The notes beneath the pieces were generated by a model. That model saw nothing but the letters and a program-made list of their open reading frames with translations, had not been told where the DNA came from and did no database searches. DNA of 64,000 nt, taken from Xylona heveae TC161. Its lineage: Eukaryota; Ascomycota; Xylonomycetes; Xylonales; Xylonaceae. Shown here one piece after another: positions 257 to 15,342 of this stretch (position 1 is the stretch's first letter; every line of letters begins with the position of its first letter). Both the position numbers and the translations under genes were made by a program. Location of the stretch: contig NW_017264196.1 in the NCBI RefSeq assembly GCF_001619985.1, forward strand, positions 372,001-436,000. The letters are read 5' to 3'.

Positions 257-502
257 ATCCGATTCCAGAAATGTAGAAGAAGGCCATCACGGGATATATT
301 CTATGCACAATTTCACCGATTCTCGTTTTTCGCTACAATAGTACATATCTTATTTGATAATAGACATTCATATTTCAGTCATGTAGCGTAGCGTCTCAGC
401 GGCGATGTGACGATTTCGGGGCTGGCCCAAAATTGCTATGCTTTGCATGATATAGGTAAATTTTAAAAAATTTATTTTTAATTGCTTCATTTATTTGTCC
501 AC

Positions 503-3500
503 TCATGGATCTTCTAATAGGTCAGAAAGCCGTTCATCACTTTCAACAAGTAGTTTGAACTCTGACGCCAATTCGACTTGTGCATCGCTTTTCACTGCGG
601 CGGTCAAGAGCTTCACCGCATTTTTAGTACTTTGCTTAAGGGTGGTGTGGTCGCTTGCTTCATCCTCTTTTAGCTTGCACCAGCAAGATGTCAAACCACG
701 CAATATCTCCCCGCGATGGAGCGCCATGCGGGGCCAATCTATCGTGATAACATTTTCAAGAGCTGATAAAGTGGTTGCTAAAAGGGGCGGATACGCAGTT
801 GCAAAGGGAGCGTCAAGAATGTCTGAGAGAATGGGTATCACAAACTGCAACATTGAATTAACAAGGGACACGATCAATGGGAGCTGAACAGCACAATAAC
901 CTACCTTTAAATGCTTGGCAGAATATATCCCCATCTCATCAACTAGGATTGAAACATGCTGGATCAAAGTCTCAGCAATCTTAACATGCTCACCTGCATG
1001 TTCATAAGCATGGAAGACACCCTGGCGCATAATAAGGTCCAGAAACTTTAATCTTTCAGCCTTATTTGCTTCCTCCGGATAGCGGACTCGCGAGAGTGTG
1101 ATGAGGGCGGGAAACGCGGCGTTAAGTATTTCGAGAGACTGATCTTCAGGCGTCAAAGTTGGCAGATAAGTAAAACAAGGCAACAATGCACCAGCCATTA
1201 CCTCCCCTAGACCGGTACGGTCCAGGAGACTTGGAGAAGTAGCTTGGAGTAGCAGATTCAGAAAGAAACAGCCCTTGGCCTTAATCTCAGGAGCATCGTC
1301 ATCAACAATGGTCATGAGTGGGGGCACCAAAAGTGGCCAGAATTCTTCCGTGAGGTATTCCTATAACTGGTGAGCCTGATGAAGGAGCAGTGGGTCAGAG
1401 CAAATACACACATTTAAATGCTTGAGGATCCACTCCAAGATACTCATTGCATACGCCTCTTTGAATTTCCACGGCTTTATGGTTGCCTCGCTGTTCATAA
1501 AGTCACCTTTTGTCCGTTGTGGTTGCATGGCCTTCCGCCCCTGAGGGGTAATCTCGGGATTTTGAGATTTGGAAAAAAGCGGTCGTACTGTGTGCCGCAG
1601 GAAAAATTCCATAAGTTCGTGGTTGAGCTCACCTCTGCCATTCTTAACTTCTTCAATCGCTCCGTCGGAGCCGGTCTCCTTCGGGTGGCGCAGCTGCCAT
1701 GCCATCACTACCTCTAAAGCATCTTTCATCCATGGACCAGGCTTAGTGTCTAGTGCTTTGGCCAACTGCTTTCCGTCAAGAATAGGCTTTAGGGCGTATA
1801 CATCGAATAAATCGAGGTCTTCTATGTGGGAAAGGAAAGTGGAATAATCCCTGATGATGGCATCTTTACAATGTGAGAGCTTGTCCAGTGATTTTTGAAA
1901 GGAGAAAAACAGACCTCTTCGTACACCTCGAGCTTCGACGACTTCCAGGAGAAGTGCTAAGAGTACGTGTGATCGCCAGTTGGCACCCCATCGACGAATT
2001 GCCATACCAAGGTGATCACGAGCAGCAAGCTCCGGCTCACTTGATTTCCTGGAAGCTCCACGTTTGTCGCTGACTACAGCAGCCTTGAATTTATTTATCT
2101 CGTCAAGGTTTTTGAATGCACCCCATATGACGTCGAATACCTTGTTCGTAGCTTTAATTCCCTCCCGAGCAACCGTTGCAGCAACAGGCGGCAGAGCTTT
2201 CCCTCCAGGCTGAGCAGGCGCAGGGTTGGGTGCGTCTGAGTACGGTGTGAGAGAAGCAAGGATCCATGCCAAGTGGGCTTCTTCAGAGCTTCGAATGAGA
2301 ATCTGCAGCACTTTGTTATACAAGGGAGCTGTTTTCGAGTCATTATTGGCAGCGGATAAGATGTCGTGGACACATTCGTAGGAGTAGTGCCATGAGCTTG
2401 TCTCTGGTGTGAATGCGTCGTTCTGAGTGGGGTCGGTAAATATTGTGGTGTAAAGTCGAAGACGATCAATTAGCTGCAGAGATCGACGAGGATCAGGACC
2501 TGCAAATGAATTAGTGTTGTTCAGTGATCATTCATCGGACGAACGACTTCACCTTTCAGCATTTTTTCAATTTCTGTGCCAACCCTTTCCCGACTAATCT
2601 TGAGCTTCAAAGCATCCCTTATGCTCTGTTCACTCATCGCTTCCTCTGCCTCCGGATCAATCTCGTAGCTCAACCGGCTTGCGAAGCGTATCAGACGCAA
2701 GACACGCAAGGGATCGTCCTTGAAGGTCTGCAGAGGTTGTAATGGTGTTCGAACGAGCCTAATAGCCATGTCGTTGAGGCCGCGCTGCGTTAAATCTTCA
2801 ATTGAACATGTTTGAAGATTATAGAAGAGAGCATTGACTGTTGCATCACGGCGTAGCGCATCTTCTTCTGCGGTCCCAAACTCCATTTGAGGATTTCGAC
2901 TGTCTTCCGAATATGTTTCCTTCCTTAGGTTCACTAGGTCGATGTCGAGACCGAGAATCTTTGTGGTAACCGTCTCGAGATGCTTTGACTTCTCAGGGTT
3001 TGCTTCTATCTTGTGGAGACCACCAACGACTTTGGTCTTGGACTTTTCGTCTTTGTCATTCGATTCTCCCAGCCCGTATTTTTCGAGATTCCCTGGGACT
3101 TCCAAATACTCCTTCATTTTGAGCCCGAACTGATAGCCAGTCATATTATTTATTGCAACGTCAATATCATGACTTCCAATTCCTAGAAGCTTGTCACGGA
3201 CCCAGCCGCCGGTGAAACGGAGCTCGAGCTTCGAATGAGCCAATTTAGGCGGAACGGGCACCCCGGAAACCGCATTTCCAGGGCTCGTTGAGCCATCAAT
3301 ATAGTCTGCAACATCAAGCAATAGCTTTCTCAATGTGCCCTCGACAGGGGTGAGCATTAAATTCCTCTTGCTGTCCATTTCTAGTGGTACGGGTGCCATG
3401 GGTGGTAGACGGATCGTTCTCGACGGTGAAGGTGAATCGACTCTTCTTTTCTTCGTGCCCCGGAGGTTCTCGAGGTCAATTGAGGTCGTGCGATACGACA

Positions 3501-3627
3501 TGCGACTGAGATGAGCCCGGCCTAAGTAGAGTGTTCTTGAGAGACTCGTGCTTATTCGCTGAGGAGCAAATCGTTTAGCTATGACAGGTAGTGGTTTGCA
3601 AAGAGGATGCCAGAAAGCAGCAGACAT
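503..3627 (-). CDS. CCA1: Fused CCA-adding tRNA nucleotidyltransferase and TTI2-like protein
   Basis: Three exons (3627-2553, 2499-1412, 1360-503) join in frame to 1006 residues. Residues about 140-320 form the class II nucleotidyltransferase head: the GGWVRD motif, the DID metal-binding pair at 154-156, RRDATVNAL at about 259-267 and DDPLRVLRLIRFA at about 304. The usual CCA1 C-terminus (a KPGPWMKDAL-like helix) lies near the end of exon 2. Instead of stopping, the frame runs on into about 390 residues that look like TTI2, the Tel2-interacting protein of the TTT complex that matures PIKK kinases. The markers are PLFS...TPQGRKA, FWPLLVPPL, TGLGEV and WPRMALHRGEIL. CCA1 adds CCA to tRNA 3' ends. 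The N-terminus is basic and hydroxylated like a mitochondrial presequence, and a second Met at residue 43 (base 3501) could start a cytosolic/nuclear form, as in yeast CCA1. Both domain calls are strong. Whether one polypeptide is made is inferred. Confidence 0.85.
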
Positions 3628-4073
3628 CCATATGAATTACAGCGCTCCAGAACTTGTTTGTTTCGTCCACGCTTAAATGAATAACCTGTAATGAATGAAT
3701 GAGACTGAGCAACCTTCAAAAGAAAGTGGGTATAGAGCGTTGCATAGCAATATCATAGTTAGAATGTTTATATGTTATTTTGTGCGTCAACGGTGCTGGA
3801 AGCGGCATTTGCCGAACGGGCAATGCGACAACGTGCATGTTGACGTTGACGATGGTGAGGGTCTCCATGTTACTCTCTTCTCCGCCTTCCGTCGTTGCAG
3901 CGTTGTCGCGCAATTTGTATGGTTCTTTAGATTTTAAGAAATAAAAGCCCTGACATCGATTTGTTTGTCATTCTCCAATCGCCAGCCGGAGATCGTAATA
4001 GCAGTCAAACGGGACTTTGCTGCCCGAAGAGCGGCCAGCGTGACTGTCTTCGTCAGCCGTTGGCGGCCTCTCA
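3628..4073. promoter_or_regulatory. Divergent promoter region, CCA1-TTI2 / TRS85
   Basis: This 446-bp gap separates the start codons of two genes that point away from each other, so it must hold both promoters and 5' leaders. No convincing TATA box or other site stands out. Confidence 0.5.
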
Positions 4074-6474
4074 ATGACTGACGACCGCTCAAGCGTCGGA
4101 TGGGTTAATTCCCCTTCGCCTGAGCCTCTAACCGGGCTGCCAAAGACAAGATCCCAGAAACCGACGAGGCCTGCATCTGCGTCGGCGACGACCCTTCCAT
4201 ATCGGAGCTCTAATGCATCGCTCTCCTCACTCTTTGCGTCCACGTCGACTCTTCCCTCAAGGGCAGGGTCAGCGCAAATAGACACACCATCTCAGGAGAC
4301 AGGCTCAGAGTCACTGTTCTTAACTGCATCACCGGGAGCAGTATCTTCCCCTACTTTTCTCGAAGACCGGTCGGACGATCCCAGAAAGCTTATTACGAGG
4401 GCCTTTGTTCCTCATGTCGCAGTTCATGCTTCTCCAGATACAGACGAGATTCTAAAAGAAAAGGGATTTGAGGGTGGTTTCAGAGAAATACTTCGGCCTT
4501 TCGGCGAACGTGTCCATGGAAAGGTTACGGTGAGAGACAGTGTAGGCGCAAGCCGGACTTGGGATGATTTCGGTGTACGATTTGTTGGCCTGGGAGATGG
4601 TATTGAAGACCCGCGGAACGGAAATCATCGAAACTCGAATGCCTTGCCGAGAGGTTCATTCGGCTCCTTGGATCAAGGGCAAGCTCTACCGGGTTTGCGA
4701 CGAGGAGGGGACATCTCAGCAATTGAAGCACTCGTTGAACGACATCTGGCATACGCAGAGCTGGTCTCGGGTGACTACATTACCGATTATCTCAACTACC
4801 AGGATCTTTCGTCCCAAAGTTCTTCTTCTATCTCGCCATTCTTTTCGCTATATCTTCGAAGGCTCTTATCAGCCATACCGTTGACTCCTCATGAGACTTT
4901 CTCTCATCCGGTGGCCTGTGTCATAGCCATTAGCTCGAGAAACCCATCTCCTATTGAGAGCCTTCGCCAGTTATACAATACTACCAGTCAAGGAGAGAAG
5001 AAACTGCCTGTGTGGGTGAACAACGATTATCTAAGATATTATGTCCTTGTTCATGACGAGGATAAAGATGACATAGCTAAATCCACTGTTTTGTTTGATC
5101 AAATGAAAAGGCATTTTGGCCTCCACTGTCATCTTCTTAGACTCCGGAGTAGCCAGTGTTTGCCAACAGATGACGATAGCGTCCGATTGCCAATTTGCAA
5201 TTGGATTTCCGCCGCCGAAGAACTTGCTGAAATTCAAAGACGAGGTCAGCTCTTTTTCATTCTATTTCTTTCGTTGTACTAATCCTGATTTAGAGCACTC
5301 GGAGGATATTGAGGACCCAAGACCTTGTCTTTTCGATTCCGACGCAACAGCTGTGCGCACATTTGTCCGCGAAATGGTCACCCAGTCGATAGTACCTTTT
5401 ATGGAGCGGTGCACTGCTACATGGAATGACCAAGTCGCATCTCGGAGGCGCGGCATTGGCGGTCGTTTCATTTCTCTTTCTAAAAGATGGACAGGGTTTG
5501 GGGCTGGAAGAAGCTCCTCAGGAACTGGTCTTGCTGGGGGCTCTACGGGATCTAACAGTAATTACGATGCATTGCAAGGTTTCTACAGACCCGACGCACC
5601 AGAGGCGATTATGCGGAAATTGGCAGATTATGCTTTCATGCTTCGAGATTGGAAGCTGGCTCAAAGCACGTATGAACTGCTTCGAACAGACTTCAACAAT
5701 GATAAAGCGTGGAGATATCATGCCGGGGCGAACGAGATGACTGCTATCAGCACACTGCTCTCACCGCAAGCTATGACCTCGAAAACCCGTTCAGAAACCA
5801 TTGATCAAATGCTTGACACAGCAGCATACTCTTATATTACAAGATGCAGCGCACCGTATGATGCATTAAGAAGCTTAGCTGTTGGCGCGGAGCTGCTCCG
5901 TATCCGAGGAGGCTCTGCTGCTGATGACGCATCACGATGGGCCATTCGTATCCTTGAGACCAGAACATTAGGAGAGATAGGAAACGCCTTGTTCACTGAG
6001 CGCGTCGGTGCATGTTATGGGTCCCGTAAAGGAGCTGGCACCGGACGCTGGGGATCTCGGCGGAGGAAGAATGCCATGTGGGACGTCCTGGCGGCCGACA
6101 TATGGCTCCGATTGGAGAAGAGCCTACAGGCTGAGAAATGCTTAAATAATGCGGATGCACTCTATCAAGAAATAGCTAATGGCCAAGAACGTGCCGAGTT
6201 TGACGGAATGCGCTCTTTCATAGAAGAGCTGCGTGTCGAGCTCCAAGCCCGAAGAGCCCCTCCACAACCTGCTGAAGGAGAGCTGGAGATGGCAAATGAA
6301 CAGAGCAATCTCATGGAGGTAGAGAGCGAGAAGATGGACCAGCGTCATCACCGCCAAAGTATCCTGGGCGCGCCGGCAGCGCCTTTTGGCACGCTTGATA
6401 CCGATGCCCTGAGTTCAGTACGGACCGTGGGCGAGCAGAATGAGGGCCCTGAGAACCAGTTTGAGCCCAATTAG
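4074..6474 (+). CDS. TRS85: TRAPP complex subunit TRS85 (TRAPPC8)
   Basis: Two exons (4074-5244 and 5294-6474, intron 49 bp) give 783 residues. After about 95 Ser/Thr/Pro-rich residues comes the family signature: RAFVPHVAVHAS, then LRPFGERVHGKVTVRDS and a WDDFGVRFV stretch. The middle includes SRNPSPIESLRQLY and the LRDWKLAQSTYELLRTDFNNDKAW region typical of the TRAPPC8 helical repeats. TRS85 defines TRAPPIII, the exchange factor that activates Ypt1/Rab1 at Golgi and pre-autophagosomal membranes. RAB6, SEC1 and CHM7 elsewhere in the window are also traffic genes, but I see no sign that they are linked in expression. Length and order match the fungal family. The start is the first Met of the open frame. 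It sits in a Ser/Pro-rich tail where a downstream start would also be tolerable. Confidence 0.88.
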
Positions 6475-13387: not shown

Positions 13388-15342
13388 ATGATATTAAGAG
13401 CGACAACCTTGCTGTCGCTGGCAGCTGCATTCGTCCCCGATGTAATTGGGACGCCTCCAGAGAAAAATCATCAGGAGGTCCCATTGGGATCCGAATCAGA
13501 AAAATACAGGGCTGCTTGTCCAGATTACGCGCTTTATTCCACCTACCTACAGTATGTGTTTGCAAACTACACCGTCACTACATTATCCAGGAAGCCCAAT
13601 TAAATTGACCTCCATCGCAGTCGCCCCTTCAGCAGCGGTCCACTAGTTCTGCCCTTTCAGCGGCCTTCCCCTCAATGCCGTACATTTTCTTCGCCGCTAG
13701 TCGAGAAGATCATCGACGACCTTACGAAGCGCATGACAGATCCAGATCTGGCGCGGATCTTTGAAAATGCATTTCCCAACACCTTGGATACGACAATAAG
13801 ATGGCACGTTGATGGCACAGAGAAGAAGTCCAAGAGCGCGGCAAAAAGCGAGAAATGGCAGGGCCCGCAGAGCTTCATTGTAACAGGCGACATCAACGCC
13901 GAGTGGCTGCGAGACTCGACGAACCAGCTCGCGCAATACCAGCGGCTCGCGAGCAAGGACAAGAAGATTGCAAACTTAATCCTCGGCGCAATCAACACGC
14001 AGGCGGAATACGTCATTCAGTCACCGTACTGCAATGCTTTCCAGCCTCCGCTACCCAGCCGACTGGCTCCGTCCAACAACGGGCAGGATGATATTGTGCA
14101 TCCTATGTATGAACCAAACTTTGTCTTTGAATGCAAATACGAGATTGACTCGCTCGCGCATTTCCTTGCACTGGGCAACCAATTCTACAAACACACGGGC
14201 TCGACCGCATTCCTTAACCAGCGATGGTACGCTGCGCTCAACAGTCTCATGCAAGTCCTGGACAAGCAGGCCCAACCAACATTCGACAAGACGGGCAAGT
14301 TCCGCCCCAATGACTACACATTCAAGCGCAGGACCGATGCTGGAACGGAAACACTCAACTTGAACGGGATTGGAAACCCGCTCAACGAAGGCACAGGCTT
14401 GATCCGGAGCGCGTTCCGTCCCAGCGACGACGCTTCAATCCTCGGCTTCTTCATTCCCGGCAATGCCATGATGGCAGTCGAGCTCAAACGCACAGCAGAA
14501 ATCCTCAAGACGGCAGGTAAAGCCGAGCTCGCCCGAACTGTGCTCGCCTGGGGCGAAAGTATAGAAAAGGGCATCTGGGAACACGGCGTCGTGCCGCATA
14601 AGAAATACGGCAACGTCTTTGCGTTTGAAGTCGACGGATACGGCTCCTCGATCCTCATGGACGACGCAAACATCCCCTCCCTCTTGGCCCTGCCCTTGCT
14701 CGGCTTCGTCGATGCCTCGAATAAAGTCTATCAGAACACCCGCAAGATGATTCTCGAGAAACAGGGGAACCCGTATTACCTCGAAGGCGAAGATTTCAAG
14801 GGTATCGGCGGCCCGCATATCGGCTTACAAAATGCCTGGCCGATGAGTTTGCTGGTTCAGGCCATGACCTCGGATTCGGATGCGGAAATTATCGACGCGA
14901 TTGACCTCGTCAAGAATGCAAGTCGTTTGGGATTAATCCATGAGAGTATTCACGTTAATCGCCGTACGGAATTCACCCGTAGGTCCTCCTATTCTTACAT
15001 TATTATTTTTTTCTATCATCTTTTTTCTCCTTCTTTTTTTTTTGCTTGTTGTTTCCCCCTCACCCCTAAAGTAAACGGACTAACATCACATAGGNNNNNN
15101 NNNNTCACCCGTAGGTCCTCCTATTCTTACATTATTATTCCCCCCCCCCCCCCTTTCCTTTTCCTCTTCTTTTTTTCTTTTCCCTTTTCCCCCCACCCCT
15201 AAAGTAAACGGACTAACATCACATAGGAAGCTGGTTCGCATGGGCAAATTCCGTCTTCGCACAAACCATTCTCGACATTGCCGAACGTAAACCCCATCTC
15301 CTCTTTGGCAAAGACGATGCAAAACCTTATATCATTGAATGA
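13388..15342 (+). CDS. GH125 exo-alpha-1,6-mannosidase (metal-independent), secreted
   Basis: Three exons (13388-13551, 13621-14978, 15227-15342) give 545 residues. The N-terminus is a signal peptide (MILRATTLLSLAAAFVPDVIG), so the enzyme should be secreted or vacuolar. Family marks include FENAFPNTLDTTIRWH, VTGDINAEWLRDSTNQLAQY, MYEPNFVFECKYEIDSLAHF and DDASILGFFIPGN, and a C-terminal FAWANSVFAQTIL. Glycoside hydrolase family 125 removes alpha-1,6-linked mannose from N-glycan or mannan ends. The codons of exon 2 are more GC-rich than those of most neighbours. The last intron (14979-15226) contains a run of ten Ns between two near-identical copies of itself. That looks like an assembly fault rather than biology, because the true intron should be near 120 bp. 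Coding sequence and phase are unaffected. Confidence 0.88.
14973..15227 (+). repeat. Artefactual direct duplication flanking the gap
   Basis: 14973-15094 and 15105-15227 begin with the same TCACCCGTAGGTCCTCC and end with the same AACGGACTAACATCACATAGG. They differ only in the pyrimidine tract between: T-rich in the first, a run of 15 C (about 15140-15154) in the second. The simplest reading is two contig ends that overlap but were not merged because of homopolymer disagreement. Confidence 0.85.
15095..15104. other. Assembly gap (10 N)
   Basis: Ten Ns lie inside the last intron of the mannosidase gene, between two near-copies of the same 122-123 bp. A fixed run of ten Ns is the kind of filler scaffolders place between contigs. 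Confidence 0.97.

What the first reader, a model, noticed from the sequence alone, without database searches (positions are those of the whole stretch)
503..3627. CCA-adding enzyme fused to a TTI2-type TTT-complex protein
One frame, with two short introns that keep phase, runs from a full CCA1 nucleotidyltransferase straight into about 390 residues that look like TTI2. No stop, promoter or spacer separates them, and the junction lies inside exon 2. The two jobs, tRNA 3'-end making and PIKK kinase maturation (TOR, ATM/ATR kin), have no known direct link. If one polypeptide is made, tRNA supply and TOR signalling could be physically coupled, or the protein could be cut after translation. I do not know how widespread the fusion is.
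Basis: partly seen in the sequence, partly recalled or inferred. Interest (0 to 1): 0.8.

Follow-up and report, generated by a model that had tools for sequence, protein, structure and literature searches.

The report
CCA-adding enzyme fused to TTI2 part
In this fungal sequence one gene seems to encode the whole enzyme that finishes tRNA ends joined directly to the rear part of TTI2, a helper in making TOR-type kinases; the joint looks real on paper, but RNA and close relatives are needed to show that one protein is made and that the link matters.

Summary
On the minus strand, 3627-503, three exons with two short GT-AG introns give one 1006-residue frame. Residues 132-638 align along a solved CCA-enzyme chain of 502 residues; residues 649-873 match Pfam Tti2 at E=2.7e-70. 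About ten codons lie between, without a stop; codon usage stays coding through the joint. The enzyme is joined near its natural end and is complete. The TTI2 part is not: human TTI2 1-193 binds TTI1 (PMC8278493) and no counterpart fits here; yeast Tti2 did not tolerate N-terminal truncation (PMC4889661). How the fused part would enter the TTT complex is therefore open. The start resembles a mitochondrial presequence, so how TTI2 stays out of mitochondria is also open. No relative holding both halves was found, but the collections hold viruses and prokaryotes, and no whole genome is held; spread and age are unknown. My searches met no paper naming this fusion. Best reading: a genuine fusion gene; functional coupling unproved.

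The parts
503..3627 (-). whole fusion gene, three exons, 1006 aa
   Evidence: spliced frame; Pfam; codon scores
3484..3627 (-). mitochondrial-presequence-like N terminus (residues 1-48: 6 R, 2 K, no D or E); further in-frame ATGs at M43, M77, M84, M91
   Evidence: targeting is inferred
2749..3222 (-). PolyA_pol head domain, residues 136-293, with GGWVRD...DID and RRDATVNA motifs
2500..2552 (-). intron 1, 53 nt, GTGAAG...CAG
   Evidence: homology of cca1 and cca2 runs across it
1661..2499 (-). rest of the CCA-adding enzyme, residues 359-638
   Evidence: alignment of 9ns2_A to residue 638
1631..1660 (-). joint, ten codons (residues 639-648), no stop
1627..1632 (-). splice-donor-like AG|GTGAGC at the joint; use with the acceptor ending at 1541 would give a 659-aa CCA-only protein; branch-like motifs there are badly placed
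   Evidence: use is untested
506..1630 (-). TTI2-related part, residues 649-1006 (Pfam match 649-873), interrupted by intron 2
1361..1411 (-). intron 2, 51 nt, GTGTGT...TAG, in-frame TAG at its 3' end
471..495 (-). two AATAAA signals just after the stop codon

Best explanation
This is a real fusion gene of a fungus, probably a filamentous ascomycete. One transcript encodes one polypeptide of about 113 kDa: a complete class II CCA-adding enzyme joined at about its natural C-terminus to the C-terminal, helical part of the TTT subunit TTI2. Shown: the continuous spliced frame, intact nucleotidyltransferase motifs, a strong TTI2 match, coding signal through the joint, and no room for a separate TTI2 promoter or 5' UTR outside the CCA coding sequence. 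Inferred: translation from a weak first AUG gives a mitochondrial form and from later AUGs (M84 has a good context) a cytosolic/nuclear form, both keeping the enzyme for tRNA ends; the TTI2 part of the cytosolic form works with TTI1 and TEL2 on newly made PIKK kinases. Whether the two activities influence each other is unknown; simple co-production of two housekeeping proteins is the default.
For: One frame over three exons; Tti2 2.7e-70, PolyA_pol 7.9e-21; alignment to the cca1 chain ends 15 residues before that chain's end, and Tti2 homology starts 11 residues later; an exon-2 piece holds both sides; codon scores trained on 11 other ORFs of the window, this gene left out, are positive in the expected frame in all seven steps covering 1890 to 1411 and higher than the other five frames there, 0.27 at the joint; on this strand AATAAA lies only at 495 and 476, after the stop, and at 2095 and 3154, inside the CCA part; catalytic-type motifs present.
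Against: No transcript or protein data and no relative holding both halves. A single sequencing error removing a stop in the joint cannot be excluded by statistics (P open 0.57). A near-consensus splice donor sits exactly at the joint. Among weaker poly(A)-like hexamers, ATTAAA occurs at 2158, 1052 and 482 and AATGAA at 3118 and 491. The TTI2 part lacks the region that binds TTI1 in human. A mitochondrial form would carry TTI2 into mitochondria. Codon scores are low in the CCA middle part (2371-2550) and slightly negative (-0.02) in two steps of the TTI2 part, 811-930 and 691-810.
Confidence: 0.65

Rival explanations
1. Switchable gene: the same pre-mRNA gives the fusion or, by splicing from the AG|GTGAGC donor at the joint (or by other early ending), a CCA-only protein, so mitochondria get the enzyme without TTI2.
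For: Donor-like site at 1632, exactly where Tti2 homology begins; of five downstream acceptors tried, three give CCA-only proteins (659, 651 and 666 aa; ends at 1541, 1491, 1361). The mitochondrial-like start would make a CCA-only form useful.
Against: The other two acceptors give 991 and 881 aa. The branch-like motifs found are badly placed (1615, 17 nt after the donor; 1501, ten nt before the 1491 acceptor). Two more GTGAGC sites (2040, 993) lie in the gene where no intron is called. A frameshift soon meets a stop anyway, so short products are not special.
Confidence: 0.12
2. Two separate genes in fact: TTI2 is translated from its own transcript or an internal start (such as M655), and the open joint is an accident or a sequencing error.
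For: A joint of this size is likely to be open by chance (P 0.57); in the yeasts the two genes are separate (recalled).
Against: No space for UTRs or promoter outside CCA coding sequence; M655 has a poor context; a TTI2 starting there would lack its N-terminal region, and N-terminal truncations of yeast Tti2 were reported not viable (PMC4889661 passages); the other two minus-strand frames score at most 0.02 in the steps between 1651 and 2490.
Confidence: 0.13
3. Partial duplicate: a complete TTI2 gene exists elsewhere, and the copy here is a C-terminal TTI2 piece captured by CCA1 as a protein-binding module.
For: The TTI2 N-terminal region is missing; human pull-downs place TTI1 binding in that missing part.
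Against: A strong family score over most of the domain (profile 36-262 of 279) shows it is not decayed. No whole genome is held, so a second copy could not be sought.
Confidence: 0.1

Closest known systems
Class II CCA-adding enzymes, fungal type (PDB chains 9ns2 cca1 and 9ns4 cca2; S. pombe origin recalled)
   Same: Head domain, RNA-binding neck and C-terminal tail align, residues 132-638 for cca1
   Different: Those chains end 12-15 residues after the last aligned residue; here the protein goes on with 358 TTI2-like residues
TTI2 of the TTT (TEL2-TTI1-TTI2) co-chaperone, Pfam PF10521
   Same: Pfam domain at E 2.7e-70; exon 3 model all helical, at low confidence
   Different: No TTI2 N-terminal region; a nucleotidyltransferase stands in its place
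Natural fungal gene fusions such as spermidine synthase-saccharopine reductase (PMC10051792; title and start of abstract in a search listing)
   Same: Two separate functions encoded as one chimeric gene in some fungi
   Different: That pair joins metabolic enzymes; here a tRNA enzyme joins a chaperone subunit

Membership tests
Class II CCA-adding enzyme | Nucleotidyltransferase head with GG-x-VRD and D-x-D motif (motif recalled) | tested here: met
   GGWVRDKLLGIGSHDID at 140; PolyA_pol above cut-off
Class II CCA-adding enzyme | RRD-T-NA, DDPLR--R--RF and S-RER-G motifs (patterns recalled) | tested here: met
   at 259, 304 and 345
Class II CCA-adding enzyme | Full-length architecture with C-terminal tail | tested here: met
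   9ns2_A 36-487 of 502 aligned with 132-638
Class II CCA-adding enzyme | Adds CCA (or only CC or A) to tRNA | not testable with these tools
   needs an enzyme assay
TTI2 | Pfam PF10521 domain over cut-off | tested here: met
   237.5 bits against 25.2
TTI2 | N-terminal region that binds TTI1 (shown for human TTI2 1-193) | tested here: inconclusive
   Only about ten residues lie between CCA homology and the Pfam domain; yeast Tti2 is shorter than human (421 against 508 aa) and no fungal TTI2 alignment was available
TTI2 | Present in the TTT complex and needed for PIKK levels | not testable with these tools
   needs pull-down and genetics
Single fused polypeptide | One transcript and one protein cross the joint | not testable with these tools
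   no RNA or protein data

The most novel reading that the evidence does not exclude
In this lineage the CCA-adding enzyme has become a fixed subunit of the TTT co-chaperone: its helical C-terminal tail has taken the place of TTI2's lost N-terminal, TTI1-binding region, so PIKK/TOR maturation on the ribosome is physically tied to the enzyme that makes tRNAs usable.
Probability: 0.12. Interest if true: 0.88.

Novelty: new variant of a known kind. Interest (0 to 1): 0.55.

Why it matters
Both halves come from housekeeping proteins (yeast Tti2 is essential, PMC4889661; that CCA1 is essential is recalled). A fixed fusion would suggest that tRNA end-making and TOR/ATR/ATM kinase maturation can or must run together, and would give a natural test of the reported influence of tRNA precursors on TORC1. 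It also poses a clear puzzle: how TTI2 works without its TTI1-binding part, and how a protein with a mitochondrial-type start is shared between compartments.

Tried and rejected
Relatives: viral contigs scanned five times and genome contigs twice. The protein-derived scans of viral contigs and of genome contigs gave 0 confirmed loci; the tool's peptide patterns were rigid, so this is weak. A CCA motif pattern gave 0 in viral contigs and 1 in genome contigs: L001, probably a eukaryotic contaminant in a MAG labelled Tabrizicola. Its CCA start is 53% identical over 223 aa to exon 1, but the contig ends inside the gene. A Tti2 search of its genome gave 0 of 1, but the 14 controls also gave none, so that answer shows no absence.

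Structure: exon 3 alone, no alignment, pLDDT 61.1, pTM 0.45, all helical; Foldseek against the PDB gave 875 matches at E<=10, 0 at E<=0.001, and none of the 50 listed is named TTI2; most are helical-repeat proteins. Exon 2 alone pLDDT 38.5, not used. phmmer of the TTI2 part against the PDB: 2 chains at E 0.42 and 0.44, named importin alpha re-exporter, taken as chance.

Overlapping TTI2 5' exons in the other minus-strand frames: not supported. A separate intron at the joint: possible donor, badly placed branch-like motifs.

Literature: 0 papers hold tti2 with tRNA nucleotidyltransferase or with cca1. Of 11 papers holding two of five terms, none has tti2. Two papers with tti2, aspergillus and tRNA were seen only in the listing. 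PF10521/DUF2454: 1 paper, passages read. PMC11541241: one passage, tti2 only in an abbreviation list. PMC2557144, on fungal gene fusions: none of five terms found. Broad searches (5,217 papers; 2,443; 247) were seen only as their first 20, 15 and 10 rows; PMC12941056, which holds tti2 once, was not opened. Eight papers were opened in all, none read whole.

Full report
The finding was checked from the raw sequence. On the minus strand the frame from ATG 3627 to TGA 505-503 is open once two short introns are removed: 2552-2500 (53 nt) and 1411-1361 (51 nt), both GT...AG.

Pfam places PolyA_pol at 136-293 (E 7.9e-21), PolyA_pol_RNAbd at 321-382 (7.5e-8), a sub-threshold tRNA_NucTran2_2 at 594-623 (0.016) and Tti2 at 649-873 (2.7e-70, profile positions 36-262 of 279). 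Against the PDB, 16 distinct chain sequences matched at E<=1, all named as tRNA nucleotidyltransferases, CCA-adding enzymes or poly(A)/polynucleotide adenylyltransferases; none is TTI2. The best two, cca2 9ns4 and cca1 9ns2, are chains of 487 and 502 residues (that they are S. pombe proteins is recalled). cca1 aligns from 36 to 487 with our 132-638, and cca2's second stretch ends at 475 of 487 against our 635. These chains thus end 12-15 residues after the last matched residue, near our residue 647-653, and Tti2 homology begins at 649. The third chain, 9kma (580 aa), has a weak second stretch that also ends at our 636. The enzyme has been joined at about its natural end and looks complete; the motifs GGWVRD...DID, RRDATVNA, DDPLRVLRLIRF and SRERVGTE are present (motif patterns from memory).

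Is the joint coding? Codon scores from 11 other ORFs of the window (4980 codons, ends trimmed, this gene left out) are positive in the expected frame in all seven 120-base steps covering 1890 to 1411; at 1591-1710 the score is 0.27 and the other five frames run from -0.49 to 0.15. Steps that overlap introns fall. In the CCA middle part, 2251-2550, the expected frame scores only between -0.16 and 0.16, so codon usage alone would not prove that stretch; homology covers it. Two steps of the TTI2 part score -0.02. A 165-residue piece wholly within exon 2 hits Tti2 at 4.1e-15 and the CCA tail family at 0.0018, the latter below its cut-off. The joint is short; eleven codons would stay open by chance with probability 0.57. 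The argument for fusion is therefore the tight spacing, which leaves no room for a 3' UTR, promoter and 5' UTR outside coding sequence, and the shared frame, rather than absence of a stop. AATAAA occurs right after the stop (495, 476) and otherwise only at 2095 and 3154, inside the CCA part; the weaker ATTAAA also occurs at 2158, 1052 and 482.

The TTI2 part is incomplete. Human TTI2 residues 1-193 co-purified TTI1, while residues 194-508 were barely soluble and did not co-precipitate it (PMC8278493, section 9 read). The DUF2454 (PF10521) domain contains residue 367, and a frameshift at 315 was described as possibly giving a protein without it (PMC6830114 passages), so the domain lies in the C-terminal portion. 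Here it begins directly after CCA1. Yeast Tti2 has 421 residues, is essential, and of many N- and C-terminal truncations only short C-terminal ones were viable (PMC4889661 passages). So a TTI2 started at an internal ATG such as M655 (context ctt-ATG-g) would be expected to fail by analogy. Either fungal TTI2 of this group is naturally short, or the CCA part has taken over the missing role, or this is a captured module and a full TTI2 lies elsewhere. I could not decide between these: no whole genome is held.

The N-terminus has 6 R, 2 K and no D or E in 48 residues, with further in-frame ATGs at M43, M77, M84 and M91, of which M84 has a good context (gaa-ATG-g) and M1 a weaker one (tgg-ATG-t) (the rating of contexts is from general knowledge). 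This suggests dual targeting by choice of start, as recalled for yeast CCA1. A mitochondrial fusion would carry TTI2 along. A donor-like AG|GTGAGC at 1632, exactly where Tti2 homology begins, could make CCA-only products (659, 651 or 666 residues for three of five acceptors tried; the other two give 991 and 881), but the branch-like motifs there are badly placed and two other GTGAGC sites lie in the gene.

A functional bridge is conceivable. [quoted passage not shown] A review reports that tRNA precursors positively regulate TORC1 in fission yeast by an unknown mechanism (PMC7563549 passages). None of the passages that I saw joins CCA1 with TTI2.

The host is a fungus: Trs85, Kei1 and Nop53 genes lie in the window (of ten ORFs given, seven had a match at E<=0.001, one of them only below its cut-offs, and three had none). 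The helicase part of the PRP22-like ORF scores higher against 6i3o than against DHX8 chains of like extent (1232.7 against about 1082 bits; longer DHX8 chains score up to 1438.5); that 6i3o is from Chaetomium and those DHX8 chains are human is recalled, and a filamentous ascomycete is my inference. Searches for relatives holding both halves failed; the collections hold viruses and prokaryotes, so this is no evidence that the fusion is rare. My paper searches did not meet a description of it, in an open-access library only; it may well be annotated in fungal protein databases that I could not search.

Noticed in passing
window 15095-15104: Run of 10 N inside a GH125 alpha-mannosidase ORF (13604-15202, + strand); the flanks on both sides are near-duplicates, which looks like an assembly join.
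   Followed up: partly
L001 1427-2242: A MAG labelled Tabrizicola carries the start of a eukaryote-like CCA-adding enzyme, so that contig is probably eukaryotic contamination.
   Followed up: partly
window 4044-6474: A Trs85 (TRAPP subunit) gene lies divergently next to the fusion gene; the two starts probably share an upstream region.
   Followed up: no
window 1361-1411: Intron 2 is 51 nt, a multiple of three, and its 3' splice site itself forms an in-frame TAG; if retained, the protein would end at 737 residues.
   Followed up: no
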